A stretch of DNA of 64,000 nucleotides. Source: Clostridiales bacterium. Lineage in GTDB: Bacteria; Bacillota; Clostridia; Christensenellales; Aristaeellaceae. This document shows positions 34,378 to 58,035 of this stretch, one piece after another (position 1 is the first letter of the stretch; the number at the start of each line of letters is the position of its first letter). The stretch lies in assembly GCA_017569285.1 (NCBI GenBank), contig CP069419.1, positions 1,550,001 to 1,614,000 on the forward strand, in the 5' to 3' direction. A program made the translations under genes and the position numbers. The notes beneath the pieces were generated by a model. It was not told where the DNA came from. It saw nothing but the letters and a program-made list of their open reading frames with translations, and ran no database searches.

Positions 34378-34480
34378 GCGATCGCCGTTACCCATTCCTG
34401 CTTCGCTTACGACTCGCAGCAATGGACGGCTGTAGCATGCGAAGCACGTTACGCGCTGAAGCGCGTGTGCTTCTGCATCA
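34378..34480 (-). repeat. Dispersed two-hairpin repeat, copy A (after prfB)
   Basis: About 100 bases, homologous to 57933-58035. Read on the minus strand it starts at the prfB stop codon (TGA) and forms hairpin 1, GAAGCAC/GTGCTTC with ACGCGC-TTCA-GCGCGT inside, then hairpin 2, GCCGT and CCATT pairing with AATGG and ACGGC. Conserved single-strand parts are GCTACAGC between the hairpins and GGTAAC near the end, and both copies finish with GCGATCGC. There is no open frame in common. It lies in an otherwise empty 120-base gap before the GTG of the DUF1461 gene. Confidence 0.85.
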
Positions 34481-35578
34481 TTGCATCTTCAGGTACGCTG
34501 TCACGAAACCTTCCAGGTTGCCGTTCATGACGTCGTCAATGTTGCCGGATTCGTAGTTCGTCCGGTGGTCCTTCACCATCGTGTAGGGCTGGAAGACGTA
34601 GGAGCGGATCTGGCTGCCCCATTCAATCTTCTTCATCTCGCCCTTGATGTCCGCCATCTGCTGTTCCTTTTCCCGCTCACGCAGTTCCAGCAGCTTGGCT
34701 TTCAGCATTTTCAGACAGGTCGCGCGGTTCTGAACCTGGTCGCGCTCCGTCTGGCAGGCCACCACGATACCCGTGGGGAAGTGCGTCATCCGGACGGCGG
34801 AACTGGTCTTGTTGACGTTCTGTCCGCCGGCGCCGCTGGAGTGGTAGGTATCCACCCGCACGTCCTTCATGTCAATCTTGATCTCGTCGCCGTCATCCTC
34901 GAGCATCGGCGCAACATCCAGGCTGGAGAAGCTGGTGTGCCGCCGGGCGTTCGCGTCGAAAGGACTGATGCGCACCAGCCGGTGCACGCCCTTTTCTCCG
35001 CGCAGGTAGCCGTAGGCATGGTCGCCGCTTACCTCGAACGTCACGCTCTTGATGCCGGCTTCATCGCCGTCCAGCAGGTCCAGCAGCTTCACCTCGAAGC
35101 CCATCCGCTCGCAATACCGGGTATACATCCGGTACAGCATCTGCGTCCAGTCCTGCGCTTCCGTTCCGCCGGCGCCGGCGTGCAGGCTCAGCACCGCGTC
35201 GCTGTCGTCATAGTCGCCCCGCATCAGGGTTTCCAGCTCCAGCGCATCCGACTGTTCCTTCAGCTTTTCCAGTTCCTCGCCGACCTCGCGCACCATATCC
35301 TCGTCATTTTCTTCCTTCGCCAGTTCCATCATGGTGTCGATGTCATCAGCGGTGGAGAGCAGGTGCTCATAATGATTCAGTTTGTTTTTCAGATGGCCCA
35401 GCTTCTGGTTCACCTTGGTGGACCGTTCCGTATCATTCCAGAATTCCGGCTGGTTCATTTCCTCGGTCAGCTCGTCGATCTGCTCCCGCATATGGTCGAT
35501 ATGCAGTGCCTCGCCGGCCGCCAGGATGCTCTTCCGGATTCCGTTGATGTCCTGGGCGTATTGTTCCAGTTCAATCAT
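34478..35578 (-). CDS. prfB: Peptide chain release factor 2
   Basis: 366 residues. Recognises UGA and UAA. The SPF anticodon-like tripeptide is in RISPFDANARRH and the catalytic GGQ in SSGAGGQNVNKTSSAVRM. The whole protein is in a single frame: the usual in-frame UGA and frameshift slippery site near codon 25 is absent (read-through ILAAGEALHIDHMREQIDEL). The stop codon itself is at the border of the dispersed structured repeat. An 82-base gap separates it from secA upstream. Confidence 0.97.
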   Translation of the reverse strand: MIELEQYAQDINGIRKSILAAGEALHIDHMREQIDELTEEMNQPEFWNDTERSTKVNQKLGHLKNKLNHYEHLLSTADDIDTMMELAKEENDEDMVREVGEELEKLKEQSDALELETLMRGDYDDSDAVLSLHAGAGGTEAQDWTQMLYRMYTRYCERMGFEVKLLDLLDGDEAGIKSVTFEVSGDHAYGYLRGEKGVHRLVRISPFDANARRHTSFSSLDVAPMLEDDGDEIKIDMKDVRVDTYHSSGAGGQNVNKTSSAVRMTHFPTGIVVACQTERDQVQNRATCLKMLKAKLLELREREKEQQMADIKGEMKKIEWGSQIRSYVFQPYTMVKDHRTNYESGNIDDVMNGNLEGFVTAYLKMQ

Positions 35579-35660
35579 GGTTATTTCTCCTTTGTTTGGG
35601 TCCCCTGCGTCAGTTTTCCGCAGTCAGTCAATTACGTCCGTTTCATTCACCAACCGCACT

Positions 35661-38360
<2,700 letters not shown>

Positions 38361-38420
38361 CGGTGTACTCCTCACGTTCGCTTTGTCCGCAGCAAAAAAA
38401 CGGACATATATAGACAAATT

Positions 38421-38449
38421 ATTATACCACCCCAACCCCCTGCCCGCAA
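38421..38449 (-). promoter_or_regulatory. Promoter of secA
   Basis: Minus strand -35 TTGCGG (38444-38449), -10 TATAAT (38421-38426), 17-base spacing; about 60 bases upstream of the start codon. Confidence 0.78.
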
Positions 38450-38488
38450 CCACAAAACATCCGGATGCCCGCTGCCTGCCGTCGGGAC

Positions 38489-38521
38489 AAAAAAGTCCGG
38501 AACCCGTATCGGGTTCCGGAC
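38489..38521 (-). terminator. Terminator of the surface-protein gene
   Basis: Perfect 12-bp stem (38495-38506 with 38510-38521), loop TAT, then T6 on the minus strand (38489-38494). It insulates secA from the gene at 38544-40502. Confidence 0.9.
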
Positions 38522-38543
38522 CCTTTGTCTTCAGTTCAGGGAA

Positions 38544-40502
38544 TCAGCCCTTCTTTGCCCTGCGGCGGTGGGCGGCTTCCGCTGTCTGCACGGCGGTATC
38601 CGCGGCGTCCTTCAGGGCTTCGCCGGCATCCTCCGCCGCTTCCCCGGCAGCTTCCTTCACGTCGTCAGCCGCTTCTTCCACGGTCTCTGCGGCCGCTTCC
38701 GCTGCCTGCTCCGCGTCTTCCTTCTTCTCGGAATACAACCGGCGCAGCGTTTCCGCCATCGGAGCTGCTTCATCCGAGATATCCGCCTTCTCCTCTGCGG
38801 GAGCCGGTGTTTCTTCCGGAGCGGCTGCCGTTTCCGCCTCTTCCTGCGGTTTATCCTCGTCCGTACCGCTGCGGATCTCGTTTCTCCGTCCGCGCTTCGG
38901 TGTGGCGCTGTAGTCGCGGTACAGGCCGCCGTCCAGGTGGTCCATCGCCTTGTTGGACTGGCTCTTGCTGATCGCCCGGCGCACCGCGCCGATCAGCAGC
39001 AGGATGGCCAGCACACCGGCCACAGCCGCCAGGATCCATTTCGCTGAATCCGCGATGCCTTCCGCCTGGCTGATCCAGGTGGGTTCCGCGGTTGCCGGGG
39101 GATAGGTGACCTGCACCGGGGCCGGCGGGGTAATCACCGGGGTCGCCGTCGGTTCCGGCGTCGGCGGTGCGTGTTTGATCGGAATCGCATTGCTCGGGAA
39201 GCTCAGGGTCTGGCCCAGCTGGTCATTCACCCGCGCCTCAAACTGGAATGTACCCTTGTCGCTGATCAGCACGTCCCGGGTAAAGGTTTTGCTCTCCCGC
39301 GGGGCAATGGAAGCGAATGTATACAGCCGCGTATTCACCGCGTACACCGCGATATTGCTGACGTCCATCGTGCTGTCATTGGTCACGGTCACCGTGAAAC
39401 GAACCTGTGCGGGAATCGTGTAAACGTTGTCCCGGTCCGCTTCTGCGGTCACTTTCAGCGCGATCTGCTGGGTGGGATCGGTGGCAATCACCTTCACCTG
39501 GCCGGTCGCGGTTTCCACCGCCTGGCCTTTTTCGTCTTCGCCCTTCACGGTAAACAGCAGGTCCTGCGTCTCCGTGATGGTCAGGTCCTTTTCCAGCGTC
39601 AGGGACTGTCCCTTCGGAACCGTCACATCTTCAAACACGGTCCCCAGTTTCTCATCCGTCACAACGACGTTCTTGTAATCGGTGGAGCCGGAGTTCTTCA
39701 GCTTCAGGGTCAGTTTAACCACATCACCCGGTGCACCGCCCTTTTTGTCGGCGGTCAGCGTGGCGCTCAGGTTGATCTTGCCGTATTTGATGGTGGCGCT
39801 GTCCACCTTGCTGGTATAGCTCTTGCCGCCGGCCTTGTAGGAAACGGTGGCTGCGCTGGTCAGGTCCTTCTTGCCCATCTTGACGGTGAAAACATGCTTC
39901 GCGGTTTCACCGGCCTTGATGCTTCCGATGGAGGCGTTGTCCTTCGCAATCGAGGAGTTCTCCTTGATGGTGACGGAGGAAACATCCGCAGAGCCTTTGT
40001 TGGTGATTTCATAAATCACGCTGACTTCCTGTCCGTCTGAGGCCGTCTGCGGGATGATGGAACGCTTCACTTCCAGTTCCGGTTCCGCGCCGGAATAATG
40101 GATATGCCGGGTGATGCCGGCAGCGTAGGATTTCAGTTCGCCTTCTTCGTTATACACGGAATAGCGGACAATGAAGGTGATCTTGCCTTCGTCCAGTTCC
40201 TTCTGCGTCACGGACCAGGGACCGCTCCAGTTCTTGCTGGACCCGACAGTCAGTGTGGGAGAGCCGAACTCATCCACCTGCTTCCCGCTGGGATAGTACA
40301 GGGTTACCGGTCCGGGGAGATCGCTTTCACCCGCGTTGCTCACCGTAATGGAAACCGTGATGGTTTTGGGCTCGGAGAAAGTGTCGTCGCTCAGTTCCAT
40401 ATTGAACTTCAGCGAATCGTTGGCCGCCAGCGCCGAACCCGTCACCAGAAGGATCAGCGCGATGCCAAGCGCCAGTACCAGCCACAGCCGTTTTCTGCTC
40501 AT
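38544..40502 (-). CDS. Large surface-exposed repeat protein with membrane anchor and Ala/Glu-rich cytoplasmic tail
   Basis: 652 residues, no recognised function. Signal peptide 1-26 (VLALGIALILLVTGSALA-A). The outer part (about 27-445) holds four to five beta-sandwich repeats of CARDB/DUF11 type, each with an ITVSNAG-, YEITNKGS-, LKLKNSG- or VTVTNDS-like strand, then a Pro/Thr-rich linker (HAPPTPEPTATPVITPP). One membrane helix (about 488-507) is followed by a 145-residue cytoplasmic tail ending in a long Ala/Glu/Asp/Lys helix (EQAAEAAAETVEEAADDV and on) and a basic tip HRRRAKKG. This resembles COG1361-type secreted or S-layer-like proteins. Own promoter; ended by a terminator. Confidence 0.88.
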   Translation of the reverse strand: MSRKRLWLVLALGIALILLVTGSALAANDSLKFNMELSDDTFSEPKTITVSITVSNAGESDLPGPVTLYYPSGKQVDEFGSPTLTVGSSKNWSGPWSVTQKELDEGKITFIVRYSVYNEEGELKSYAAGITRHIHYSGAEPELEVKRSIIPQTASDGQEVSVIYEITNKGSADVSSVTIKENSSIAKDNASIGSIKAGETAKHVFTVKMGKKDLTSAATVSYKAGGKSYTSKVDSATIKYGKINLSATLTADKKGGAPGDVVKLTLKLKNSGSTDYKNVVVTDEKLGTVFEDVTVPKGQSLTLEKDLTITETQDLLFTVKGEDEKGQAVETATGQVKVIATDPTQQIALKVTAEADRDNVYTIPAQVRFTVTVTNDSTMDVSNIAVYAVNTRLYTFASIAPRESKTFTRDVLISDKGTFQFEARVNDQLGQTLSFPSNAIPIKHAPPTPEPTATPVITPPAPVQVTYPPATAEPTWISQAEGIADSAKWILAAVAGVLAILLLIGAVRRAISKSQSNKAMDHLDGGLYRDYSATPKRGRRNEIRSGTDEDKPQEEAETAAAPEETPAPAEEKADISDEAAPMAETLRRLYSEKKEDAEQAAEAAAETVEEAADDVKEAAGEAAEDAGEALKDAADTAVQTAEAAHRRRAKKG

Positions 40503-40593
40503 AATGTTTCGGAGCCCCCGCTCCTTCCTCCTTCCTCCGGTGGATGCCTCCGCCGGACCCGCTATGAATTTACGGTTACAGGATGTCTATGAT

Positions 40594-40622
40594 ATTTTAC
40601 CGGCTAAGCCATGCCATGTCAA
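40594..40622 (-). promoter_or_regulatory. Promoter of the surface-protein gene
   Basis: Minus strand -35 TTGACA (40617-40622) overlaps the stop of the upstream gene; -10 TAAAAT (40594-40599), 17-base spacing; about 90-base leader before ATG 40502. Confidence 0.8.
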
Positions 40623-41464
40623 GCTTTCGGCTCCTCTTCGGCGAAATCCGCCGGCGGAATCTCCCCTTCCGGCGGAGCGGGCTCCGCAAACGAATCCGCC
40701 CAGGCCGGTTCCATTTCGTCCATCCGGATCTGCTCCACGGCCGGTTCCCGGACCGCGCTGCGCCTTGCCGCAGGCGCGTCCTGCGCCATGGACGGCGGCA
40801 GTTTCACCTTTTTCTTCTTCCCCAGTTTCTCCTGGGCAAAGCCGATGGTATCATCCCAGGAGAATGGCGTGCAGATCGTGGGAATCCGCAGCCACCAGGC
40901 CGGGGCATAGAAGAGAATCATGCATTTTTCAGGCCACAGCTGCACCCGGGCTACGTCCTTCCAGGCCAGGTCCCTGCGGGAAAGCATCAGCACCCGGGTA
41001 TCCCCGCCCTCGGCCTGTTTCGCCGCCGCCGGGGATTTCATCCGCATCAGCAGTTTCAGCGGGGTCGGATCCGGCAGATAGCGGGTCTCATGGATTCCCC
41101 GGCTGTCCACCACAAAGTCGGACAGTTCCTTTCCCTGAAGCAGCAGGACGGCAAACACCGCCAGCAGGGCCGCTGCCAGCAGGATCAGCAGGGTCAGCGG
41201 GAAACCGGAAGTCATCATCCGCTCCACCGCGGCGATTCCTCCGCTCACCGCCTCCAGGACCAGCACCAGCACCAGGATAACCAGCGCCGCTGGCAGCAGC
41301 ACGCGCATCACGCTGTTCCAGTACATCCAGTCCTTCACCGGCGTGCGTTCCACGCACCATGCGGCATGCGCGGCATTTTTCCCCAGCCGGGTTCCGCAGC
41401 GGGGGCAGATCTCCCCCGGCTCCACTTCCCGGCCGCATTTTTTGCAGTATGCTGTCAGTGCCAT
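40619..41464 (-). CDS. Zinc-ribbon membrane protein of unknown function
   Basis: 281 residues. An N-terminal zinc ribbon (CKKCGREVEPGEICPRCGTRLG, C-x2-C...C-x2-C) precedes two membrane segments (VLLPAALVILVLVLVLEAV and LTLLILLAAALLAVFAVLLL). The following 100 residues (LSDFVVDSRGIHETRYLPDPTPLKLLMRMKSP ... VLMLSRRDLAWKDVARVQLWPEKCMILFYAPAWWLRIPT) look like a PH-like (bPH) beta domain, with an acidic, Pro-rich tail. Similar architectures are common in Clostridia without a known role. Own promoter; upstream of the surface protein gene but with that gene's own promoter between. Confidence 0.83.
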   Translation of the reverse strand: MALTAYCKKCGREVEPGEICPRCGTRLGKNAAHAAWCVERTPVKDWMYWNSVMRVLLPAALVILVLVLVLEAVSGGIAAVERMMTSGFPLTLLILLAAALLAVFAVLLLQGKELSDFVVDSRGIHETRYLPDPTPLKLLMRMKSPAAAKQAEGGDTRVLMLSRRDLAWKDVARVQLWPEKCMILFYAPAWWLRIPTICTPFSWDDTIGFAQEKLGKKKKVKLPPSMAQDAPAARRSAVREPAVEQIRMDEMEPAWADSFAEPAPPEGEIPPADFAEEEPKA

Positions 41465-41504
41465 TCCCGGCCTCCCTTGCGGCGTGACGCCGTCTGTCGC
41501 ATTG

Positions 41505-41533
41505 ATTATACATCAGAACCCGCCCTGGGGCAA
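41505..41533 (-). promoter_or_regulatory. Promoter of the zinc-ribbon membrane protein
   Basis: Minus strand -35 TTGCCC (41528-41533), -10 TATAAT (41505-41510), 17-base spacing. Confidence 0.72.
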
Positions 41534-41561
41534 AGCTTTTGCACCGGTATCCGTCCAAACG

Positions 41562-41592
41562 AAAAGGATGCCGCCCGCCGGGCAGCATCCTT
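41562..41592 (-). terminator. Terminator of the MATE gene
   Basis: AAGGATGC (41564-41571) pairs with GCATCCTT (41585-41592), with an inner GCCCG/CGGGC; on the minus strand TTTTCGTTT follows. Confidence 0.8.
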
Positions 41593-41614
41593 CTCCGTTT
41601 CCCTCTTCCGGGAA

Positions 41615-42997
41615 TCATGCGTCCAGCACATTCTCCCGGGTAATGTTCCGCAGCCATTTCCGGCTCCGGTAGTGCCGGAATACCCATGGCCACTTCACAA
41701 ACTCATCCGTGCACAGCAGGAAATAAACCGCCAGCGGCGGAAGTTTCAGCGCCGCCGCGGCCAGGAAACCCAGCGGAACCGCGTAGCACCACATATCAAT
41801 CGTGTCGCAGACAAAGCCGAACCGGCTGTCTCCCCCCGCCCGGAAGATCCCGGCGATCAGGGTGGTGTTCACCGCCTGCCCCATCACGTAATAGGTGTTG
41901 ATCAGCAGCATTCCCTTCAGGTATCCCCGTCCGGCTTCCGTCAGGTTCGCGAACCGCAGTGCCGGCGGGATGCAGGCCAGCACCACCAGGCCGCCCGCAA
42001 TGCCGGACAGTACCGTCAGTTTCATCAGCACCTTCGCGCCCTGCTCCGCTTCCTTCATCTGCCCGTTCCCGAGCAGCTGCCCCAGCAGGATTCCCCCGCC
42101 GCTGGCCACGCTGAAGCACAGCACCGTACCGAAGTTCCGCACCAGGGAGGTAAAAGAGTTGGCAGCCACCATATCTGTCCCGAGAAACTGCCCGATGATC
42201 ACGGAATACATCGAGAATGCCAGTCCCCAGGAAACGTCGTTCAGCGTGACCGGCATGGCCATCCGCAGGAAATCGCGGAAAAGCGCCTTGCTCCGGATCA
42301 GCATATACGACAGCTTCAGCTTTACGTCCCGGCTCCGGCCGGATACCGCCAGCGCCAGAATCAGTTCCACGATCCGTGAGATGGATGTCGCCAGGGCCAC
42401 ACCCGCTGCGCCGAGCTTCGGCGCGCCGAACAGCCCGAAGATAAACACTGCGTTCAGCAGGATATTCAGCAGGAATGCCGTGGTGTTCAGCGCCGTGCTG
42501 ATCCCCACCCGCCCCACGGAGCGCAGCGTGGCGAGGTAGATTTCAATCAGGCCCCAGCAGAGGTAGGCAGCAGACACATTCCGCAGGTATTCCGCGCCGA
42601 TGGCGATCAGCTCCGGATCCGGTGTAAACACCCGCATCATCTGTTCCGGAATCAGCAGGGCCGCGGCTGCCAGCATCGCTGTCACAATCACGGAGAATCG
42701 CAGCGCGATGCCTTCCACCGCATCCACAGCCTTCAGGTCGCCCCGGCCGAAATACTGGGCGCTCAGCATGGTCACGCCGGTTCCCAGCCCGTACAGCACC
42801 ATAAACAGGACGCTGGCATACTGGGCTGCCAGGGAAACCGCCGATATATGCGCCTGCCCCACGAAATTCAGCATCACCACGTCCGCGGAGTTGACCGCTG
42901 CGCTCAGCAGGTTCTGCAGGATGATCGGGCCGGTCAGCTTCATGATCTGCCTGCACACCGGGCGTTCATCCCGGGTGATCCGGATTCTGTTGATCAT
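41615..42997 (-). CDS. MATE-family multidrug/toxin exporter
   Basis: 460 residues with twelve predicted membrane helices. N-terminal KLTGPIILQNLLSAAVNSADVVMLNFVGQAHISAVSLAAQ is the MATE signature; the second half repeats it with AMPVTLNDVSWGLAFSMYSVIIGQFLGTDMVAANSF. Na+- or H+-driven efflux of cationic compounds; substrate unknown. It sits alone between the ABC importer and the zinc-ribbon gene. The GGAGG lies 13 bases before the ATG, slightly far, but no better start is seen. Confidence 0.93.
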   Translation of the reverse strand: MINRIRITRDERPVCRQIMKLTGPIILQNLLSAAVNSADVVMLNFVGQAHISAVSLAAQYASVLFMVLYGLGTGVTMLSAQYFGRGDLKAVDAVEGIALRFSVIVTAMLAAAALLIPEQMMRVFTPDPELIAIGAEYLRNVSAAYLCWGLIEIYLATLRSVGRVGISTALNTTAFLLNILLNAVFIFGLFGAPKLGAAGVALATSISRIVELILALAVSGRSRDVKLKLSYMLIRSKALFRDFLRMAMPVTLNDVSWGLAFSMYSVIIGQFLGTDMVAANSFTSLVRNFGTVLCFSVASGGGILLGQLLGNGQMKEAEQGAKVLMKLTVLSGIAGGLVVLACIPPALRFANLTEAGRGYLKGMLLINTYYVMGQAVNTTLIAGIFRAGGDSRFGFVCDTIDMWCYAVPLGFLAAAALKLPPLAVYFLLCTDEFVKWPWVFRHYRSRKWLRNITRENVLDA

Positions 42998-43106
42998 ACC
43001 GGTTGTGTTTCCTCCGTCCCTGGCACTCCGGGCGTAGTCAGTTCAGCCTTGTTCTTTCCGTTGTTTCCGGGCCTTCTGTCCATGCCCGCAATCGTTTGCT
43101 TTCCGT

Positions 43107-43135
43107 ACTGTATCATGGACCGCCCGGAATTTCAA
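43107..43135 (-). promoter_or_regulatory. Promoter of the MATE gene
   Basis: Minus strand -35 TTGAAA (43130-43135), -10 TACAGT (43107-43112), 17-base spacing, about 110 bases before the start codon. Confidence 0.6.
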
Positions 43136-43146
43136 TCCCACAAAAA

Positions 43147-43176
43147 CAGAATCCCGGAGTATCTTCCGGGATTCTG
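43147..43176 (-). terminator. Terminator of the sugar ABC importer operon
   Basis: Perfect 12-bp stem (43147-43158 with 43165-43176); followed on the minus strand by TTTTTG. Confidence 0.9.
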
Positions 43177-43192
43177 GGAAAAAACAGGCCGA

Positions 43193-44065
43193 TCAGCCCT
43201 TGACCGCACCGGCGATGAAACTGTCCTGGATCCGTTTGCTCAGCAGGACGTACACAATCAGCGTCGGGATGGTGGCAATCGAAAGGGATGCGCCGATGGC
43301 GCCCCACTCCGTAGAGTACTGGCCCACCAGGCCCTGGATACCCACCGGCAGCGTCTTCAGGGCTTCCTTGCTGTTGAAGATCGTTGCGAACATCAGCTCG
43401 TTCCAGCACTGCAGGAAGGTATAAATACCCACGGTGGAAACCGCCGGAACCATCAGCGGGGCAATGACGCGGAAGAAAATTCCCCAGACACCGCAGCCGT
43501 CCAGGAAGGCGGCCTCGTCCAGGTCATAGGGAATGTCCCCCATGAACCCGGTACTGATCAGGATCGCCATCGCCAGCGAGAACGCTGAATAGGGAATGAT
43601 CAGCGCTCCGTAACTGTTCAGCATGCCTACCCTGCTGAGCACCACATATAGGGGAACAATGGCCGCGTGGATCGGGATGGTCAGCCCGAGCATGAAGAAC
43701 TTGTTCATGGTCTCCCGGCCCTTCCACACCAGCCGCGTCATCGCGTAAGTCGCCATAACTGCCGCAATAAGTGTAAAGAGGATGGAAGATACGGCAATAA
43801 CCAGGCTGTTGAGGAAATACCGGCCCATACTGCCGGTGTGCAGCGCCCGGTCATAGTTCTCCCACGCCCAGTAATTCGGCAGTCCGATCACATTGGATCC
43901 GAATATTTCGGAATTGTTCTTCAGGGAGAAGGTCAGCATCCAGTAAACTGGAAAAAGGCTGACAAACGCCCATACAATCAGAACGGTGAAGATCAGCACC
44001 GTACGGACCGAAAGCTTGTTGCCGGCAGTATGAGCCCGGCCGGCTTTGATTTCAACTGTGCTCAT
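43193..44065 (-). CDS. Carbohydrate ABC transporter permease (MalG-like)
   Basis: 290 residues, six membrane helices. The EAA loop that contacts the ATPase is EAAFLDGCGVWGIFFRVIAPLMVPAV. N-terminal LIVWAFVSLFPVYWMLTFSLK and the GLTIPIHAAIVPLYVVLSRVGMLNSYGALIIPYSAF block are typical of the MalG/UgpE group (CUT1 family). Its start overlaps the upstream permease stop by 4 bases. Operon order is binding protein, permease 1, permease 2; no ATPase gene is present, so a shared MsmK-type ATPase must be supplied elsewhere. Confidence 0.95.
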   Translation of the reverse strand: MSTVEIKAGRAHTAGNKLSVRTVLIFTVLIVWAFVSLFPVYWMLTFSLKNNSEIFGSNVIGLPNYWAWENYDRALHTGSMGRYFLNSLVIAVSSILFTLIAAVMATYAMTRLVWKGRETMNKFFMLGLTIPIHAAIVPLYVVLSRVGMLNSYGALIIPYSAFSLAMAILISTGFMGDIPYDLDEAAFLDGCGVWGIFFRVIAPLMVPAVSTVGIYTFLQCWNELMFATIFNSKEALKTLPVGIQGLVGQYSTEWGAIGASLSIATIPTLIVYVLLSKRIQDSFIAGAVKG

Positions 44066-44946: not shown

Positions 44947-44972
44947 TTCTGAAATTCCCCTTCAAGAAAAGG

Positions 44973-45018
44973 AGGGAGGCGGTCCCTGCCGGGTTCCCCC
45001 TTTGGGGACCGTCTCCCT
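44973..45018 (-). terminator. Intra-operon hairpin between binding protein and permease genes
   Basis: AGGGAGGCGGTCCC (44973-44986) pairs with GGGACCGTCTCCCT (45005-45018) with one G-T wobble; on the minus strand TCCTTTTCTTG follows. Such structures after binding-protein genes usually act as partial terminators or mRNA 3'-end stabilisers. Confidence 0.75.
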
Positions 45019-45062
45019 GAATTCACTGGGATTTGACTGTATAATGATCCTTTACGGATACA

Positions 45063-46301: not shown

Positions 46302-46326
46302 AAGAATCCTCCTATAAAAAATATAA

Positions 46327-47087: not shown

Positions 47088-47168
47088 GCACAAAATGTAG
47101 GATTTGCATACATTCTTCCCCTTTTTGCACATGCCCCGAAAGTTATGGTATCGTTATCAACCCTTGTA

Positions 47169-47182
47169 AACCAACGTTTGTT
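47169..47182. promoter_or_regulatory. LacI-type operator-like near-palindrome
   Basis: AACCAACGTTTGTT is a 12 of 14 match to a perfect inverted repeat with a central CG, the hallmark of LacI/CcpA-family sites. It lies about 80 bases upstream of the secreted-protein promoter in an A+T-rich gap. The candidate regulator is not encoded here. Confidence 0.35.
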
Positions 47183-47266
47183 AATTATTGTTCTTTTTGT
47201 GGTTTTGCCCGTTTTCTACCGGTTTTACCGGAAATTCATCTGCTTTGTCGGAAAAAAGGGCGGAAT

Positions 47267-47298
47267 AAAACCGGAACGGCGTATTCCGTTCCGGTTTT
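47267..47298. terminator. Terminator of the GH3 gene
   Basis: Perfect 13-bp stem (47267-47279 with 47286-47298), loop CGTATT; on the minus strand the right arm ends in TTTT followed by ATTCC. 27 bases after the GH3 stop. Confidence 0.85.
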
Positions 47299-47300
47299 CC

Positions 47301-47318
47301 ACCACAATATATTGTGGT
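47301..47318. repeat. Perfect 18-base palindrome after the GH3 stop codon
   Basis: ACCACAATATATTGTGGT is a perfect inverted repeat with no spacer, 7 bases beyond the GH3 stop and directly before the terminator. Its role is unknown; it could be a protein site or extend the terminator structure. Confidence 0.8.
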
Positions 47319-47324
47319 TGCGCA

Positions 47325-49604: not shown

Positions 49605-49667
49605 ACGTTCCGTCCCTTTCTGTCCGATGCATCTGTCGGCAGGCTGCAATTTTCAGCTCTTTTACTT

Positions 49668-49697
49668 ATTATGTCATCTCCTCCGGACGAATGTCAA
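49668..49697 (-). promoter_or_regulatory. Promoter of the GH3 gene
   Basis: Minus strand -35 TTGACA (49692-49697), -10 CATAAT (49668-49673), 18-base spacing, about 60 bases before the start codon. Confidence 0.72.
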
Positions 49698-49768
49698 CCG
49701 GCCTTCTTCCGGGAACCGTCCCGGATCCTGTCCGCTTTTGTTCGCTTTTCTTTCCTTTGGATATACGT

Positions 49769-49774
49769 TATAAT
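49769..49774 (+). promoter_or_regulatory. -10 box of rarA
   Basis: TATAAT 30 bases upstream of the rarA ATG. The -35 region (49745-49751, T-rich) has no good match. Divergent from the GH3 promoter. Confidence 0.5.
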
Positions 49775-49804
49775 AAGCATATCAAGGAAAACGGAGGCGC
49801 TCCC

Positions 49805-51139
49805 ATGAACGAACCCACCCTGCTGCCGGAAGAAACGCCGAACCCGGCCGGCCAGCCGCTGGCAGCCCGGATGCGTCCGGCCACGCTGGATGAAATTGCC
49901 GGCCAGCGGCATCTGCTGGGCCCGGGGAAGGTGCTGCGCCGCCTGATCGAGTCGGACGTCATTACCTCCATGATCTTCTGGGGTCCTCCCGGCGTCGGCA
50001 AAACCACGATTGCCCGGGTCATCGCCCTGCGGACCAAGGCCGCGTTCATCGATTTCTCCGCCGTCACCAGCGGCATCAGGGAAATCCGCCAGGTCATGCA
50101 GCAAGCGGAAGAAAACCGTGTCTACGGCGCACGGACGATCGTCTTTGTGGACGAAATCCACCGCTTCAACAAAGCCCAGCAGGATGCCTTCCTTCCCTTT
50201 GTGGAAAAGGGCAGCATCGTGCTCATCGGCGCAACCACCGAAAACCCTTCCTTCGAGGTTAACAGCGCGCTTCTGTCCCGCTGCAAGGTCTTTGTGCTGC
50301 AGGCCCTCAGCCGGGAGGATATCCTGTCCCTGCTCCGCCGGGCCCTCACGGATGAGCGCGGTTTCGGGCGGGACCACGTCACGATCAGCGAAAAAGCCCT
50401 GGACGCCATCGCCGGCTTCTGCAACGGAGATGCCCGCAGCGCCCTGAGCACGCTGGAGATGGTCGTCCTCAACGGCGAAGCCGGGGAAACCGGAATCCAT
50501 GTGACGGATGAGATCGTCGCCCAGTGCCTCAGCCGGAAAAACCTCATGTACGACAAGGACGGCGAGGAGCATTACAACCTTATCTCCGCCCTGCATAAAT
50601 CCATGCGCAATTCCGATCCCGATGCCGCCGTCTACTGGATGATGCGGATGCTCGAGGGCGGCGAAGATCCGCTGTACATCGCGCGGCGGGTGCTGCGCTT
50701 TGCTGCCGAGGATGTCGGCCTGGCCGATCCGCGGGCCATGGAGGTTGCGGTGGCCGCCTACCAGGCCTGCCATTTCATCGGGGTGCCAGAATGCAACGTG
50801 CACCTGGCGGAAGCCGTGGTTTACATGTCCCTGGCGTCCAAGTCCAACGCGATGGAAATTGCCACCATGGAGGCAAAGGAAGCCATCGAGAAGGAGCCGG
50901 ACGCACCGGTTCCGCTCGTCATCCGCAACGCCCCCACCACCCTGATGAAAAACCTGTCCTACGGCAAGGGTTACCAGTACGCGCATGACTATGAGGAAAA
51001 GATCACGGCCATGCAGTGCCTGCCTGATGCCCTGAAGGACCGGAAGTTCTACCACCCCACCACCCAGGGGCTGGAAGCCAAATATAAGGAACGCCTCGAA
51101 CAGATCGAAGCCTGGAAGAAAGAACATAGGGGTAAATAA
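49805..51139 (+). CDS. rarA: Replication-associated recombination protein RarA (MgsA)
   Basis: 444 residues. AAA+ ATPase acting at stalled forks, related to clamp loaders. LAARMRPATLDEIAGQRHLLGPGKVLRRLIE is the family opening; Walker A WGPPGVGKTTIARVI, Walker B VDEIHRFNKAQQDAFLPF, sensor 1 LIGATTENPSFEVNSALLSRCKVF, and the C-terminal tetramerisation domain DPDAAVYWMMRMLEGGEDPLYIARR. ATG at 49805 follows CGGAGG by 7 bases. Convergent with fhs across a shared terminator. Confidence 0.96.
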   Translation: MNEPTLLPEETPNPAGQPLAARMRPATLDEIAGQRHLLGPGKVLRRLIESDVITSMIFWGPPGVGKTTIARVIALRTKAAFIDFSAVTSGIREIRQVMQQAEENRVYGARTIVFVDEIHRFNKAQQDAFLPFVEKGSIVLIGATTENPSFEVNSALLSRCKVFVLQALSREDILSLLRRALTDERGFGRDHVTISEKALDAIAGFCNGDARSALSTLEMVVLNGEAGETGIHVTDEIVAQCLSRKNLMYDKDGEEHYNLISALHKSMRNSDPDAAVYWMMRMLEGGEDPLYIARRVLRFAAEDVGLADPRAMEVAVAAYQACHFIGVPECNVHLAEAVVYMSLASKSNAMEIATMEAKEAIEKEPDAPVPLVIRNAPTTLMKNLSYGKGYQYAHDYEEKITAMQCLPDALKDRKFYHPTTQGLEAKYKERLEQIEAWKKEHRGK

Positions 51140-51157
51140 TCTGTCCGAACATCACAA

Positions 51158-51187
51158 AAGGCACACGCGCCGAAGCGCGTGTGCCTT
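51158..51187. terminator. Terminator shared by rarA and the purine operon
   Basis: Perfect 12-bp stem (51158-51169 with 51176-51187), loop CCGAAG; T-rich on the plus side, AAAA then mixed on the other. Confidence 0.8.
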
Positions 51188-51202
51188 GCTTTATATCTGC
51201 GA

Positions 51203-52882
51203 TCAGAACAGGCCGGTGATCTTGCCGGTGTTCTCGTCCACGTCGATGCGTTCCGCCGCCGGGGACTTCGGCAGGCCGGGCATCGTCATGATCTCGCCGG
51301 TCAGTGCGACCAGGAAGCCGGCGCCTGCGGAAACCTTCAGGTTGCGGACGGTCACGGTGAATCCTTCCGGTGCGCCCAGCAGGGCGGGATCGTCGGAGAA
51401 GGAGTACTGCGTCTTGGCCACGCAGATGGGGAGCTTGTCAAAGCCCAGCTCGGTCAGCCGTTCCGCCTGCTTCTTCGCCGCAGGAGTCAGGGCAACGCCG
51501 GCGCCGCCGTAGATCTTCTTCGTCACGGCTTCCAGCTTCTCCTCAATGCTCATATCCAGGTCATAGCTGAAGGTGAAGTTGCCCTTCTCCTCCTCGCACA
51601 GCCGGACCACTTCGCGGGCCAGCTCCTCGCCGCCCTTGCCGCCTTCCGCCCACACGGTGCTCAGCACGGTGTTGACGCCCAGCTCGCGGCACTTCTTCAC
51701 GATGAAATCGATCTCCGCGTCGGTGTCCGTCGGGAAGCGGTTGATCGCCACCACGCAGGGCAGCTGGTAAACGGTCGTGATATTGTTCACATGGCGCAGC
51801 AGGTTCGGGATACCCTTCTCCAGGGCCGCCAGGTCCTCGGTGGCCAGCTGCTTCTTGTCCAGGCCGCCGTGCATCTTCAGTGCGCGCACCGTGCCGACCA
51901 CGACCACCGCGTCGGGGGTCAGGCCCGCCATCCGGCACTTGATGTCCAGGAACTTCTCCGCGCCCAGGTCGGCACCGAAGCCGGCTTCCGTCACGGTATA
52001 GTCGCCCATCCGCATCGCCATGCGGGTCGCCATCACAGAGTTGCATCCGTGGGCAATATTCGCGAACGGTCCGCCGTGAACGAACGCGGGAGTGCCTTCC
52101 AGCGTCTGCACCAGGTTCGGCTTCAGCGCGTCGCGCAGCAGGGCCGCCATGGCGCCGGTCGCCTTCAGGTCGCCGGCGGTCACGGGCTTGTCGTCATAGG
52201 TGTACGCCACGATGATCCGGCTCAGGCGTTTCTTCAGGTCCGCCATATCGCTGGCGAGGCAGAACACCGCCATGATCTCGCTGGCCACGGTGATATCAAA
52301 GCCGTCCTCACGCGGAACGCCGTTTGCCTTGCCGCCGAGGCCGTCCACCACAAACCGCAGCTGCCGGTCATTCATGTCCACGCAGCGCTTCCAGGTGATC
52401 TTCTTCACGTCGATTCCCAGGGCATTTCCCTGCTGGATATGGTTGTCCAGCATAGCCGCCAGCAGGTTGTTCGCCGCGCCGATGGCATGGAAATCGCCGG
52501 TGAAATGCAGGTTGATATCCTCCATGGGCACGACCTGGGCATAGCCGCCGCCGGCGGCGCCGCCCTTGACGCCGAACACCGGGCCCAGGCTGGGCTCGCG
52601 CAGCGCCACGGTTACGTCCTTGCCGATCCGGCTCAGGCCGTCAGCCAGGCCGATCGTGGTCGTGGTCTTGCCTTCTCCGGCGGGAGTCGGCGTGATCGCG
52701 GTCACCAGCACCAGCTTGCCGGGCTTCCGGTCGGTCTCGGTGATCAGGGCGGGATCGATCTTGGCTTTGTAGCGGCCGTACTGCTCGATGTACTTCTCAT
52801 CGACATGGGCCTTTTTCGCAATCTCGGTAATGGGCTGCATTTTGCACTGCTGTGCAATCTCAATGTCGGTAAGGTATGCCAT
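51203..52882 (-). CDS. fhs: Formate-tetrahydrofolate ligase
   Basis: 559 residues. ATP-dependent formation of 10-formyl-THF from formate and THF. P-loop [16 protein letters not shown]; also [31 protein letters not shown] and the C-terminal [20 protein letters not shown] block are intact. It ends the purine operon, 31 bases after purL, so it likely serves the two formyl-transfer steps (PurN and AICAR formyltransferase) rather than acetogenesis alone. No other Wood-Ljungdahl genes are in the window. Confidence 0.97.
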
Positions 52883-52913
52883 GGTCTGCCTCCTTGTTAT
52901 GGTTCGTTGGTTC

Positions 52914-55900
52914 TCATCCTTTGAAATATTTCACTGCGGATTCAAACATCCGGATATCGTAATTGCCGGGTACATTCTTATACAGTCCGGCGCCGACACG
53001 CTCGCTGTGGCCCATCTTGCCGAATACACGGCCATCAGGGCTCGTGATGCCCTCAATTGCCATGCGGCTGCCGTTCGGGTTGAAGCGCACATCCATCGTC
53101 GCGTTGCCGTCCAGGTCTACATACTGCGTGGCAACCTGCCCGTTTTCGATCAGGCGGGCAATCGTCGCGTCATCTGCGAGGAAACGGCCTTCGCCGTGGC
53201 TGATCGGTACGGAGTAAATATCCCCGACCTGGGTTCCCTGCAGCCAGGGGCTGCGGTTGCTCGCGATCCGGGTCCGCACCATGCGGCTCTGGTGGCGGCC
53301 GATGATGTTGAAGGTCAGCGTCGGGCAGGTCTCATCCGTGTCGATGATCTTTCCGAAGGGCACCAGTCCCAGCTTGATCAGGGCCTGGAAGCCGTTGCAG
53401 ATACCGCACATCAGGCCGTCGCGCTTCTCCAGCAGCTCGGTCACACCCTCGCGGACCGCCTGGTTCCGGAAGAACGCGGTAATGAACTTGGCGCTGCCGT
53501 CCGGTTCGTCGCCGCCGCTGAAGCCGCCGGGGATAAAGATCGCCTGGCTCCGGCCGATTTCGCGGGCGAAATCCTCCACGCTGCGGGCAATGCCTTCCGC
53601 CGTCAGGTTGTTGATCACCATGATGCGGGCATCCGCGCCGGCATCCCGGACCGCCCGGGCGCTGTCATATTCGCAGTTTGTTCCGGGGAACGCGGGAATC
53701 AGAATCCGCGGCCGCGCGGTCTTCACCGCAGGCGCCGCCCAGCTTTCCGCCGGGAAGGAAATATTCTCCGCCTTCTCATCCGGTGTCGGAATATTGCAGG
53801 GATATACGGATTCCAGCTTGTCTTCCCACAGGCACTGCAGGCTGGCCAGGGAAATGCTTTCGTCGCCCAGGGTCAGTCTGCCGTCGTCCGTCACTTCGCC
53901 CAGCAGCCGGCCGGCTTCCGCGTCATCCGTCTCCACCAGGAAGTCGCCGTAGCGGTAGCAGGTCAGCTCATCGACCGTCCAGCCCTCCGCGTAGCGGACG
54001 CCCAGGCCGTTGCCAAAGCTCATCTTCATGACCGCCTCGGCGATTCCGCCGAGTCCCGGCGTAAAGCAGGCATATACCTTGCCTTCCCGGGCCAGCTTTG
54101 TCACCTTGTCAAAGGTGGCCAGCAGGGATGCCGTATCCGGCAGTCCGTCTGCGTTGGTTTCCGTGTGCAGCAGCACCAGCTTGTGGCCGGCCTGCTTGGT
54201 TTCCGGGGAAATGATGTCGCCGGTCTTCGCCATGGTCACCGCGAAGGAGACCAGTGTCGGCGGAACGTCCAGCTTCTCAAAGGAGCCGCTCATGGAGTCC
54301 TTGCCGCCGATGGCGCCGATTCCCAGCGCCTTCTGGGCTTCAAAGGCACCCAGCAGGGCCGCCAGGGGCTTGCCCCAGCGCCGTCCGTCCTTCCCGGGCT
54401 TCTCAAAGTATTCCTGGAAGGTCAGGTATACGTCACTGAACTCCGCGCCGGAGGCAATCAGCTTGCTCACGGATTCCACCACCGCCAGGTAGGCGCCGTG
54501 GTAGGGGCTCTTTTCCGTGATAAAGGGGTTGTATCCCCAGGCCATCAGGGAGCAGTCGTCGGTATGCTTCTGCTCCATGCTTACCTTCTGTACCATCGCC
54601 TGCACGGGGGTCAGCTGGTTCTTTCCGCCGAAGGGCATCATCACGCTGCCCGCGCCGATGGTGGAGTCAAACCGCTCGCCCAGGCCGCGCTTGGAGCACA
54701 TATTCAGGTCCGTGGCCATGGCCTTCATATTGTCGGTGAAGCTTCCGGAAACCTTCCGCTGCCAGTCTTCCGGCTTTGCGGGGTTGATCCGGATATGCTT
54801 CGGCGCACCGTTGGAATTCAGGAATTCGCGGCTGATATCCACGATGGTCTTACCGTTCCAGTTCATCCGCAGCCGCGGCTCTTCCTTCACGACCGCCACC
54901 GGGCAGGCCTGCAGGTTCTCCTCACCGGCCAGCTTCAGGAACGCATCCACGTCTTCCGCCGCAACCACAACGGCCATCCGTTCCTGGCTTTCGGAAATCG
55001 CCAGTTCCGTGCCGTCCAGTCCTTCGTACTTCTTCGGCACCGCGTTCAGGTTGATTTCCAGCCCGTCCGCCAGCTCGCCGATGGCGACGCTCACGCCGCC
55101 CGCGCCGAAGTCATTGCACCGCTTGATCATCCGGCAGGCATCGCCGTTCCGGAACAGGCGCTGCAGCTTGCGCTCCTCAGGTGCGTTGCCCTTCTGGACC
55201 TCCGCACCGCAGGTCTCCACGCTGTGGGCGTTATGCGCCTTGGAGGAGCCCGTCGCGCCGCCGATGCCGTCGCGTCCGGTGCTTCCGCCCAGCAGGATCA
55301 CCACGTCTCCGGGGGCCGGACGCTCCCGGCGGACGTTTTCCGCCGGCGCCGCCGCGATCACCGCGCCGATTTCCATGCGCTTCGCGGCATAGCCGGGATG
55401 GTAAATCTCATCCACAATACCGGTCGCCAGGCCGATCTGGTTGCCGTAGGAGGCATATCCGGCCGCCGCCGTGGAAACCAGCTTGCGCTGCGGCAGCTTA
55501 CCGGGAATCGTTTCGCTCACGGGCACGGTCGGGTCGGCCGCGCCGGTCACGCGCATCGCGCCGTAGACATAGGCCCGGCCGCTCAACGGGTCGCGGATCG
55601 CGCCGCCGATGCAGGTAGCCGCGCCGCCGAAGGGTTCAATCTCCGTCGGATGGTTGTGGGTTTCATTCTTAAACAGCAGCAGCCAGGGCTCTTTCTTCCC
55701 GTCGGCTTCCACTTCGATCTTGACCGTGCAGGCATTGATTTCTTCGCTCTCATCCAGCTTCGGCAGTTTGCCGTTCGCTTTCAGCCAGCGCACCGCCACG
55801 GTGGCGATGTCCATCAGGCAGACCGGCTTGGTCCGGCCCAGCTCCTTCCGCACCGCCAGGTAATCCGCGTATGCCTTCTCCAGCACCGGATCCTCAAAGG

Positions 55901-56603
55901 TGACCCCGTCGATCTCCGTCAGGAAGGTGGTGTGGCGGCAGTGGTCGCTCCAGTAGGTGTCCAGCATCCGGATCTCGGTAATGGTGGGCTCCCGCTTCTC
56001 GCTCCGGAAGTATTCCTGGCAGAACGCGATATCGTCCGCGTCCATGGCCAGGCCATAGCTTTCCACAAAGCGCTCCAGGCCGGCCCGGTCCAGCGCGGTA
56101 AAGCCGTCCAGCGTGGCCACTTCCGTGGGCACAGCGTATTCAGCCTTCAGCGTGGCGGGCTTTTCCAGCGAAGCTTCCCGGGCTTCCACCGGGTTGATCA
56201 CATACTTCTTGATCTCCGCGATTTCCGCGTCTCCCAGGTTCCCGTACAGCACGTACAGGCGCGCGCTGTGAATCAGCGGCCGTTCGCCCTGGCTGATGAT
56301 CTGGATGCACTGGGCCGCGGAGTCCGCCCGCTGGTCAAACTGGCCGGGCAGGTATTCCACCGCGAAAACCGTCGCGCCTTCCGTATCCACCGCGGTCGTC
56401 GCGATGTCGAGCTGCGGCTCGGAGAATACGGTCTTCACCGCGTAATTGAACAGCTCTTCCGAAATGTTCTCCGCGTCATAGCGGTTCAGCAGCCGGACCT
56501 TCTCCAGGCCCTGGATGCCCAGCAGCGTTTTCGCGTCATTCTCCAGTGCCCGGGCTTCGTTGTCCAGGCCGGGTTTCTTTTCCACAAATATTCTGTAGAC
56601 CAT
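52914..56603 (-). CDS. purL: Phosphoribosylformylglycinamidine synthase, large single-chain type
   Basis: 1229 residues. Converts FGAR to FGAM with glutamine and ATP. N-terminal PurS-like and linker region, two PurM-like ATP-binding halves ([18 protein letters not shown] with [32 protein letters not shown], and [24 protein letters not shown]) and a C-terminal class I glutaminase domain: [31 protein letters not shown], nucleophile in [16 protein letters not shown] and final PISHGEGRF. All parts are present in one chain, as in some Clostridia and Proteobacteria, so separate purS and purQ are not needed. 28 bases after purD. Confidence 0.97.
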
Positions 56604-56631
56604 AATGTCTCTCCTGATTGCTGTGCTTTTT

Positions 56632-57891
56632 TCAGGCGTTCAGCGCCCGTGCCGCGATATCCCGCCGGCAGTACTTGTTTTCAAACTCAATCCGGTCCGC
56701 CATCGCGTAGGCTTCGTCGCGCGCTTCCTGCAGGGTTCCCGCCACCGCGGTCACACCCAGCACCCGCCCGCCGGAAGTCACCAGTTTTCCGTCTTTTTCC
56801 GCGGCGCCCGCCACATACACATGGGGCAGCACATCCGCCGGAATCGTGATCTCATATCCCTTGCTGTAGGAAACCGGATACCCGGCGGAAGCCAGCACCA
56901 CGCAGCACGCGTTCGCGTCACGGAACTTCACTTCGCACTCCGCCAGCTTCCCGGCCGTCACCGCCTGCATCACCGTCAGCAGGTCGCTTTCCAGCAGGGG
57001 CAGCACCACCTGGGTTTCGGGGTCGCCGAAACGGCAGTTGTACTCAATCACCTTCGGCCCGTCCTTCGTAATCATCAGGCCGAAGTACAGGCAGCCGCGG
57101 AACTCACGGCCTTCCGCCTTCATCGCCCGGATCGTGGGCAGGAAAATCGTTTCCATGCACTGCGCAGCCACCGCGTCGGTGTAGAAGGGGTTCGGCGCCA
57201 CCGTGCCCATACCGCCGGTATTCGGGCCGGTATCGCCGTCCCCGGCGCGCTTGTGGTCCATGCTGGAAATCATCGGCACCACAGTGGTTCCGTCCGTGAA
57301 GCTCAGCACGGAAACCTCCGGCCCTTCCAGATACTCTTCGATCACAATCTGGTCGCCGCTCGCGCCGAATTTCTTGTCCTCCATGGCCTCGCGCACGGCA
57401 GCTTCCGCATCCTCCCGGGTCATGGCCACGGTCACGCCCTTTCCCAGGGCCAGGCCGTCCGCCTTCACCACCGTGGGAATCGGCGCTTCCTTCAGGTACT
57501 CCAGCGCATCTTCCGCGTTGTCAAACACCCGGTATTCCGCGGTCGGAATGCCGTATTTCTTCATCAGGTCCTTGGAGAACACCTTGCTGCCTTCAATGAT
57601 GGCCGCGTTCTTCCGGGGCCCGAAGCAGGGAATCCCGATTGCTTCCAGCGCATCCACGCAGCCCAGCACCAGCGGATCATCCGGTGCGACCACCGCGTAA
57701 TCCACGGGGTTTTCCTTCGCGAAGCGGACAATTCCGTCAATGTCGGTCGCCTTGATCGGCACGCAGGTCGCGTCCGCCGCGATGCCGCCGTTTCCCGGCA
57801 GGGCCCAGATGGTATCCACCGCGGGATTCTCCCGCAGCTTTTTGATAATGGCATGTTCACGGCCGCCGCCGCCAATCACCATCAGCTTCAT
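56632..57891 (-). CDS. purD: Phosphoribosylamine-glycine ligase
   Basis: 419 residues. GAR synthetase, ATP-grasp enzyme. N-terminal MKLMVIGGGGREHAIIKKLRENP, ATP-binding PTVVKADGLALGKGVTVA, EEYLEGPEVSVLSFTDG and metal-binding RFGDPETQVVLPLLESD. Follows the structured repeat copy B after the AICAR formyltransferase gene. Ribosome-binding site AGGACAG-like; ATG is standard. Confidence 0.96.
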   Translation of the reverse strand: MKLMVIGGGGREHAIIKKLRENPAVDTIWALPGNGGIAADATCVPIKATDIDGIVRFAKENPVDYAVVAPDDPLVLGCVDALEAIGIPCFGPRKNAAIIEGSKVFSKDLMKKYGIPTAEYRVFDNAEDALEYLKEAPIPTVVKADGLALGKGVTVAMTREDAEAAVREAMEDKKFGASGDQIVIEEYLEGPEVSVLSFTDGTTVVPMISSMDHKRAGDGDTGPNTGGMGTVAPNPFYTDAVAAQCMETIFLPTIRAMKAEGREFRGCLYFGLMITKDGPKVIEYNCRFGDPETQVVLPLLESDLLTVMQAVTAGKLAECEVKFRDANACCVVLASAGYPVSYSKGYEITIPADVLPHVYVAGAAEKDGKLVTSGGRVLGVTAVAGTLQEARDEAYAMADRIEFENKYCRRDIAARALNA

Positions 57892-57932
57892 ATTCTGTCC
57901 TCGCTATGATTTATTGAATTTCACCATGCAGT

Positions 57933-58035
57933 GCGATCGCTGTTACCCATTCCCGCATCGCCTGCGGCTCGCGGGAATGGACAGCTGTAGCACGGGAGCC
58001 ATTCGCCGCGCTGAAGCGCGGATGGCTCTCCGTCA
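57933..58035 (-). repeat. Dispersed two-hairpin repeat, copy B (after AICAR formyltransferase)
   Basis: About 100 bases, homologous to 34378-34480 and in the same orientation relative to its upstream gene. On the minus strand it begins at the TGA stop and forms hairpin 1, AGCCAT/ATGGCT with CCGCGC-TTCA-GCGCGG, and hairpin 2, GCTGT and CCATTCCCGC with GCGGGAATGG and ACAGC. Stem bases differ from copy A in pairs (ACGCGC/GCGCGT to CCGCGC/GCGCGG; GCCGT/ACGGC to GCTGT/ACAGC), keeping the fold, while the TTCA loop and GCTACAGC are conserved. Confidence 0.87.

What the first reader, a model, noticed from the sequence alone, without database searches (positions are those of the whole stretch)
34378..58035. 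Two dispersed copies of a two-hairpin element with compensatory base changes, each starting at a stop codon
Copies at 34378-34480 (after prfB) and 57933-58035 (after AICAR formyltransferase) are homologous, in the same orientation relative to the upstream gene, and begin at the TGA stop. Stem bases change in pairs (ACGCGC/GCGCGT to CCGCGC/GCGCGG; GAAGCAC/GTGCTTC to AGCCAT/ATGGCT; GCCGT/ACGGC to GCTGT/ACAGC) while the TTCA loop, GCTACAGC linker and GCGATCGC end are constant. That is covariation, the mark of a selected RNA fold rather than a random repeat. It is not followed by a U-run, so it is not a plain terminator. It may be a mobile REP-like unit, an mRNA 3'-end protector or a small-RNA element.
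Basis: seen in the sequence. Interest (0 to 1): 0.78.

Follow-up and report, generated by a model that had tools for sequence, protein, structure and literature searches.

The report
Mobile two-hairpin repeats in rumen Clostridia
The two matching hairpin pairs belong to a family of roughly 100-base jumping DNA pieces, present in many copies in one group of gut bacteria, that keep their folded shape while their sequence changes and that sometimes hold related pieces inside them; what moves them is unknown.

Summary
Window 34377-34478(-) and 57932-58033(-) are copies of a 102-nt two-hairpin element whose stems differ by paired changes. They belong to a family: 8 matches in this genome, 33 of 45 genus genomes, up to 44 per genome; 2 weak matches outside the genus among 297 order genomes. 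Covariation is strong: 98.9% of 2882 stem cells pair, 24 of 28 pairs change on both sides.

The interpretation needs changing. It is mobile DNA: 6 of 8 copies in two G031 stretches are missing from G001, a close relative. It is not, as a class, a sense 3'-UTR RNA: of 102 copies the nearest gene is antisense for 60, sense for 42. Resident copies rarely covary: six stem changes between close same-site copies each make or remove a mismatch, one more gives a G-U pair. Two-sided changes come as whole-hairpin exchange. Related hairpins lie inside its loop or bulge.

Best reading: a non-autonomous, shape-conserved palindromic mobile repeat, REP/SDR-like, probably moving as a folded single strand. No enzyme was identified.

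The parts
34377..34478 (-). Element copy A (between prfB and a Lit-like gene)
   Evidence: cmsearch R1 92.2 bits (row is in the training set), blastn with copy B, E 1.2e-16
34438..34477 (-). Copy A hairpin 1: lower stem, 3-nt bulge on the 3' arm, upper stem with TTCA loop
   Evidence: fold and model alignment
34377..34437 (-). Copy A hairpin 2 with TGC(TACA)GC ... GC(GATC)GCA base and 3-nt bulge
57932..58033 (-). Element copy B (between formyltransferase and purD)
   Evidence: cmsearch R1 94.2 bits (row is in the training set)
57993..58032 (-). Copy B hairpin 1
57932..57992 (-). Copy B hairpin 2
34478..35578 (-). prfB, upstream neighbour; its stop codon abuts copy A
   Evidence: TIGR00020, 510 bits
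58033..59217 (-). phosphoribosylaminoimidazolecarboxamide formyltransferase, upstream neighbour; its stop codon abuts copy B
   Evidence: NF005492, 688 bits

Best explanation
A family of non-autonomous mobile palindromic DNA repeats of one genus of rumen Clostridia; the 108 copies of alignment A4 are 85-118 nt long. Each unit is two bulged hairpins joined by CATGC-TACAGC and ending GCGATCGCA. SHOWN: many copies, fixed geometry with free stem sequence, presence/absence between close relatives, position mostly beside gene 3' ends and often next to short AT-rich direct repeats, tandem copies, whole-hairpin exchange at a fixed site, and related hairpins lying inside its loop or bulge. INFERRED: that the unit moves as a folded single strand (ssDNA more likely than RNA), that the fold is what the moving machinery recognises (so stems co-vary between lineages but decay once resident), and that the enzyme acts in trans. 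The enzyme is not identified.
For: 33 of 45 genus genomes match, G031 44 times. Pairing 98.9% of 2882 cells, 24 of 28 pairs changed on both sides, 0 of 500 shuffles as high on four of five measures and 1 of 500 on pair types; sliding partners by 1-3 columns drops pairing to 33-44%. Of 8 copies in two 19.9-kb G031 stretches, 6 are absent at the same place in G001 and 5 in G007. 82 of 102 copies have a gene's 3' end as the nearest gene end. Left-flank 6-mers GAATTG, AAGTTA, CAGTTA or TAATTG in 64 of 108; 5-mers on the two sides identical in 34 of 108, against 11.6 on average and 22 at most when flank pairs are shuffled, at an offset chosen after seeing the flanks. Tandem copies abut (L290, L377). 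Hairpin 1 replaced while hairpin 2 is kept: secY-adk in G000 against G006 and L271 against L289. A 107-nt hairpin sits in the bulge in G001, not in G031; a second type sits at a hairpin loop in 12 of 12 hits, judged by eye and not all independent.
Against: No transposase was found: 0 of 36 scanned Y1-transposase loci carry the element (more Y1 genes exist in the genus), and three of nine genomes with 19 or more copies (G018, G021, G038; 89, 70 and 60% complete) have no Y1 hit. Copy number correlates weakly with Y1 count (rho 0.30, p 0.043, all 45; rho 0.32, p 0.12 in 25 genomes at least 85% complete), but also with completeness (rho 0.40). Empty sites lie in variable short repeats, so exact ends and a target duplication cannot be proven. 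GU exceeds AC, 33 to 17, and one same-site change and two tandem-copy changes are between G-U and a Watson-Crick pair, which leaves room for some strand-specific constraint. Ectopic gene conversion alone could move hairpins among existing copies.
Confidence: 0.82

Rival explanations
1. A cis-acting RNA element of mRNA 3' ends (stabiliser or processing site), kept by selection on its RNA fold.
For: Strong covariation; in the window and 13 other copies it starts at or near the stop codon of a sense gene; the prfB copy is shared by G000 and G006 (L003, L112); GU 33 against AC 17.
Against: Nearest gene antisense for 60 and sense for 42 of 102 copies; among nearest 3' ends 54 antisense, 28 sense. 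Six of seven one-sided stem differences between close same-site copies make or remove a mismatch. Most secY-adk and purH-purD loci read lack it: 24 of 28 and 25 of 30.
Confidence: 0.08
2. A REP/REPIN-type repeat moved by a Y1 (RAYT) transposase of the host.
For: Bulged palindromes, extragenic, tandem copies, compensatory changes as described for REPINs (PMC3116915, passages); Y1 genes exist in 28 of 45 genus genomes, one tested passes the REP-associated transposase cut-off; weak correlation rho 0.30.
Against: 0 of 36 Y1 loci carry the element; the three long Y1 genes of G000 are flanked by other palindromes; three of nine rich genomes show no Y1 hit; no GTRG head at the foot.
Confidence: 0.25
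3. Retrotransposition through an RNA copy.
For: Stable fold of one strand; RNA intermediates proposed for cyanobacterial SDRs (recalled, paper not held).
Against: PF00078 reverse transcriptase has no match in G001, G002, G007, G027 and G031 (95-99% complete, 26-44 copies), nor in 7 of the 9 genomes with 19 or more copies; rho 0.02 over 45 genomes.
Confidence: 0.08
4. No dedicated enzyme: replication template switching and gene conversion copy palindromes between sites and restore arm symmetry.
For: Near-perfect arms with few GU, whole-hairpin swaps at fixed sites, tandem copies, sites in short repeats.
Against: The asymmetric 3-nt bulge, linker and 3' end are kept across copies, and no element-like sequence was seen at the empty sites printed.
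Confidence: 0.2

Closest known systems
REP / REPIN / BIME elements of gammaproteobacteria with RAYT transposases
   Same: Short extragenic palindromes, doublets, tandem clusters, compensatory changes, non-autonomous mobility (PMC3116915 and PMC2817692, passages read).
   Different: No GTRG head, not found at the Y1 loci scanned, two different hairpins in fixed order with bulge and linker, free stem sequence, nesting.
Small dispersed repeats (SDR) of Nostoc and relatives (Elhai et al. 2008)
   Same: By recall only (paper not held; cited in PMC2884548 and PMC3116915, passages): compensatory changes, lie in heptameric tandem repeats, nest in copies of themselves, confined to one subgroup.
   Different: SDRs are recalled as 21-27 nt with a simpler fold; this unit is about 100 nt with two hairpins, in Clostridia.
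Double-hairpin elements and GC clusters of fungal mitochondria
   Same: Two-hairpin or palindromic mobile units (titles in listing; passages of PMC4478555); that they lack an enzyme of their own is recalled.
   Different: Mitochondrial; kinship not tested.
Insertion sequences that target REP palindromes (IS1397, IS621)
   Same: Insertion inside palindromic repeats (PMC1525189, passages).
   Different: Here the inserted pieces are themselves small hairpin repeats.

Membership tests
REP/RAYT (REPIN) | rayt gene flanked by the same repeat | tested here: not met
   0 of 36 Y1 loci scanned, flanks about 1.5 kb or shorter for most; not all Y1 loci of the genus were scanned
REP/RAYT (REPIN) | GT(A/G)G head at the hairpin foot | tested here: not met
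   Foot is TG(A/C); GTA lies in the bulge
REP/RAYT (REPIN) | extragenic, palindromic, multi-copy | tested here: met
   104 of 108 copies outside predicted genes; 8-44 matches in own genome and the rich genomes
MITE of a DDE transposon | terminal inverted repeats | tested here: not met
   Ends TTGAGG/TGATGC and GCGATCGCA are not inverted copies, read from the alignment
MITE of a DDE transposon | target-site duplication | tested here: inconclusive
   Identical flanking 5-mers 34 of 108, shuffled mean 11.6, but sites are in short repeats
SDR (Elhai; features recalled) | compensatory stem changes | tested here: met
SDR (Elhai; features recalled) | lies in 7-nt tandem repeats | tested here: inconclusive
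   Seen by eye at filled/empty sites; lag-7/8 score 30% against 12% of controls at threshold 0.5, 9% against 6% at 0.6, 0 against 1.5% at 0.7
SDR (Elhai; features recalled) | nests in copies of itself or kin | tested here: met
   Kin nested in loop or bulge; the same canonical unit inside itself was not looked for systematically
SDR (Elhai; features recalled) | 21-27 nt size | tested here: not met
   85-118 nt in the 108 copies of A4
Intrinsic terminator | U-run after the stem | tested here: not met
   Window copies only
Known Rfam family | score over gathering cut-off | tested here: not met
   0 matches in window; none over cut-off in 4 loci
Mobile element | presence/absence at one site between close relatives | tested here: met
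   6 of 8 sites empty of it in G001, 5 of 8 in G007

The most novel reading that the evidence does not exclude
A self-nesting mobile element whose identity is its shape: an unknown enzyme recognises bulged hairpins on a single strand rather than their sequence, so stems are free to change in pairs, and the loops and bulges of earlier copies become landing sites for later kin, building hairpins inside hairpins.
Probability: 0.3. Interest if true: 0.8.

Novelty: new variant of a known kind. Interest (0 to 1): 0.58.

Why it matters
It is a clear case in which strong covariation, normally read as proof of a functional RNA, comes with mobile DNA whose resident copies mostly do not covary. It warns RNA-discovery pipelines, and it gives a system with finished relatives in which shape-guided mobility of a tiny element could be tested.

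Tried and rejected
RAYT partner: searched Y1_Tnp in own genome and genus, read three long Y1 genes of G000 and their flanks, scanned 36 Y1 loci: no element. IS200 or RAYT ends as parent: ends of 13 loci printed, no resemblance seen by eye. Reverse transcriptase: no tracking. Rfam: none over cut-off. Hairpin 1 5' arm as target-derived sequence: a few copies repeat it after the element, but it is not in the empty sites printed, so I read these as partial tandem copies; they remain poorly explained. Over 59 copies the longest-match distribution otherwise looked like the control.

Rows dropped. Of 88 distinct elements 68 went into A3. Left out were 18 loci whose hairpin 1 was not canonical, two of which (L057, L060) had merely imperfect stems, one degenerate tandem copy of L136, and one duplicate. 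This favours high pairing. A4 is limited to E<=1e-11 and fitted to the model, so it leans to the structure too. One search uses a codon-usage gene finder of my own whose genes were not checked beyond a stretch of the window. One search scored only 13 candidates per genome with strict filters, so absence outside the genus is weakly tested.

Full report
What is there. The two intervals hold homologous 102-nt elements on the minus strand, 34377-34478 and 57932-58033. The upstream genes are prfB and phosphoribosylaminoimidazolecarboxamide formyltransferase, the downstream ones a Lit-like membrane protein gene and purD. Both fold into two hairpins better than 200 of 200 dinucleotide shuffles.

The family. 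Blastn with copy B finds three further places in the own genome at E<=3e-11, copy A among them (a last row at E 0.64 is not one), and matches in 20 of 45 genus genomes at E<=0.001. A pattern of linker, gap and 3' end hits 57 stretches of genome contigs, all titled Clostridia or Clostridiales bacterium, many from ruminant guts, and 3 viral contigs. From 88 distinct elements I kept 68 for alignment A3 and model R1. R1 matches at E<=0.001 in 33 of 45 genus genomes: G031 44, G002 36, G001 30, G027 29, G007 26, G038 26, G018 23, G021 22, G008 19, own genome 8. Twelve genomes have none. In 297 genomes of the order, 6 have a match: four of this genus and two of another family with weak matches, E 2e-6 and 2e-4 (strict filters, 13 candidates scored per genome). 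Those two fold alike in hairpin 1 but have another 3' end. The genus carries no name here; Aristaeella is my guess from recall and was not tested.

Anatomy. 5' TG, one unpaired A or C, an 8-bp lower stem, an upper stem, and 3 unpaired bases on the 3' arm; then CA, TGC, a TACA/GATC internal loop (63 of 68 rows), a 5-bp stem GCYGT, an upper stem of free length, a GTA bulge (61 of 68) and GCA. Upper stems of hairpin 1 are mainly of two types, CCGYG/GCRCGG and CCAAAT/ATTTGG. In A3 98.8% of 1904 cells pair and 22 of 28 pairs change on both sides; 0 of 500 shuffles reach this on four measures, but 59 of 500 reach the number of pair types. In the 108 copies of A4 (103 distinct) it is 98.9% of 2882 cells and 24 of 28, with 0 of 500 shuffles on four measures and 1 of 500 on pair types. 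Both alignments lean to the structure by selection or fitting, but the slid controls, at 33-44% paired, show the scale.

Covariation is mostly not maintained in place. A4 holds 33 GU, 17 AC and 18 other mismatched cells of 3022; 11 GU cells are at one pair. I clustered the 108 copies by outer flanks: 15 clusters, two of them tandem copies within one genome, 13 shared sites. Leaving out pairs with a whole hairpin changed, six stem changes separate close same-site copies (L267/L280, L270/L404, L273/L283 two, L275/L403, L266/L434); each makes or removes a mismatch, none is compensated. One further one-sided change, at secY-adk, gives a G-U pair; the tandem pairs show one mismatch (L290) and two G-U changes (L377). 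Two-sided changes come as blocks: secY-adk in G000 against G006, flanks 95-97% identical, differs at 6 modelled pairs on both sides, through a whole-hairpin-1 swap with hairpin 2 retained. L271 (G031) and L289 (G001) likewise differ in hairpin 1 with hairpin 2 much alike (flanks 95% on one side, 85% on the other). At purH-purD G000 and G006 differ in both hairpins. The L401/L415/L420 site and L417 against L266/L434 also differ by several two-sided changes, at 84-90% and 73-77% flank identity, where the order of events cannot be told.

Mobility. Two 19.9-kb G031 stretches hold 8 copies. At the same places G001 lacks 6 and has 2 (one with a nested insert); G007 lacks 5 and has 3. At one of the six, G001 carries a different insertion. 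Identity of the aligned parts is 84-99% with G001 (most of the length 92-99%) and 86-98% with G007. Filled sites lie in short repeats such as AAGTTTT, GAATTCT or GAGTGAA that themselves vary, so ends are uncertain by a few bases. The 5 bases left of the last base before the element equal the 5 bases after it in 34 of 108, against a shuffled mean of 11.6 and maximum of 22 (offset chosen after seeing the flanks): compatible with target duplication or with the repeat context. A lag-7/8 repeat score is raised only at low thresholds (30% against 12% at 0.5; 9% against 6% at 0.6; 0 against 1.5% at 0.7). At secY-adk, of 28 loci read out of 30 fetched (40 genomes matched), four have the element: G000, G006, G030, G024. 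At purH-purD, of 30 loci fetched, four have a full element (G000, G006, G017, G034), one a partial one (G038), and in three the downstream gene was not found nearby.

Position. Of 108 copies, 102 lie outside predicted genes with both neighbours known, 4 lie inside a predicted gene, 2 lack one neighbour. The nearest gene end is a 3' end in 82 of 102 (54 of an antisense gene, 28 of a sense gene) and a 5' end in 20 (6 antisense, 14 sense). An earlier count on 54 copies gave neighbour patterns of the same kind. So the window copies, in sense and at the stop codon, are the minority arrangement.

Nesting. The G031 copy L256:12789 is plain; its G001 counterpart carries a 107-nt hairpin in the hairpin-1 bulge. 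Relatives of that piece occur at other fetched loci, and its last 45-47 nt match the window at 256-302, 360-404 and 463-507 at 81-82%. A second two-hairpin type lies directly after CTTCAG- or CTTTAG-like loop sequence in 12 of 12 hits of a pattern, judged by eye, once inside another such unit (L135). The pattern was made from nested examples, so stand-alone variants could be missed, some of the 12 may be the same site in two genomes, and presence/absence was not tested for this type.

What moves it. The three long Y1 genes of G000 have their own palindromes around them; the one scanned is called REP-associated tyrosine transposase. None of 36 Y1 loci carries the element. Over 45 genomes rho with Y1 count is 0.30 (p 0.043), with reverse transcriptase count 0.02, with completeness 0.40. 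The partner is unknown. Movement as a folded single strand is inference from the strand-asymmetric fold, the nested pieces in loops and bulges, and the analogy with REPINs.

Known or new. REPINs share compensatory changes and tandem clusters (PMC3116915, passages). REPs go with flanking rayt genes and a GTRG head (PMC2817692, passages), neither met here. The nearest match I recall is the cyanobacterial SDR family; that paper is not held, only citations were seen. The listings of six searches (one search listed 10 of 26 papers) showed nothing on such a family in Clostridia, and a search on the guessed genus name listed no repeat paper among the 10 of 14 titles shown. I call it a new variant of a known kind.

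Noticed in passing
window 207-563: Tandem repeats of about 103 bp whose parts match, at 81-82%, the hairpin found nested in the element's bulge in G001.
   Followed up: partly
L042, L043, L044 (G000:C1:1810930, 2935271, 2899018): Three long Y1 transposase genes with their own short palindromes nearby (GGGACGGTC/GACCGTCCC and others); a separate repeat system in the same genome.
   Followed up: partly
L123, L138, L147, L234, L292:2245: The sequence right after the element repeats the 5' arm of its own hairpin 1, 7 to 23 nt; partial tandem copy or a trace of the insertion mechanism.
   Followed up: partly
L293 (G075), L294 (G194): Distant relatives in another family of the order, similar hairpin 1 but ending CAGCCTACTGCC, possibly a sister family.
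   Followed up: partly
L121, L130: A shared small hairpin (CCTGTGCCCTTTATGGG) sits in the loop of hairpin 1 at two loci.
   Followed up: no
L136 (same place as L394): A degenerate copy in tandem with an intact one.
   Followed up: no
L147, L148, L149: Copies on short contigs of the viral collection; whether they are phage or host sequence was not tested.
   Followed up: no
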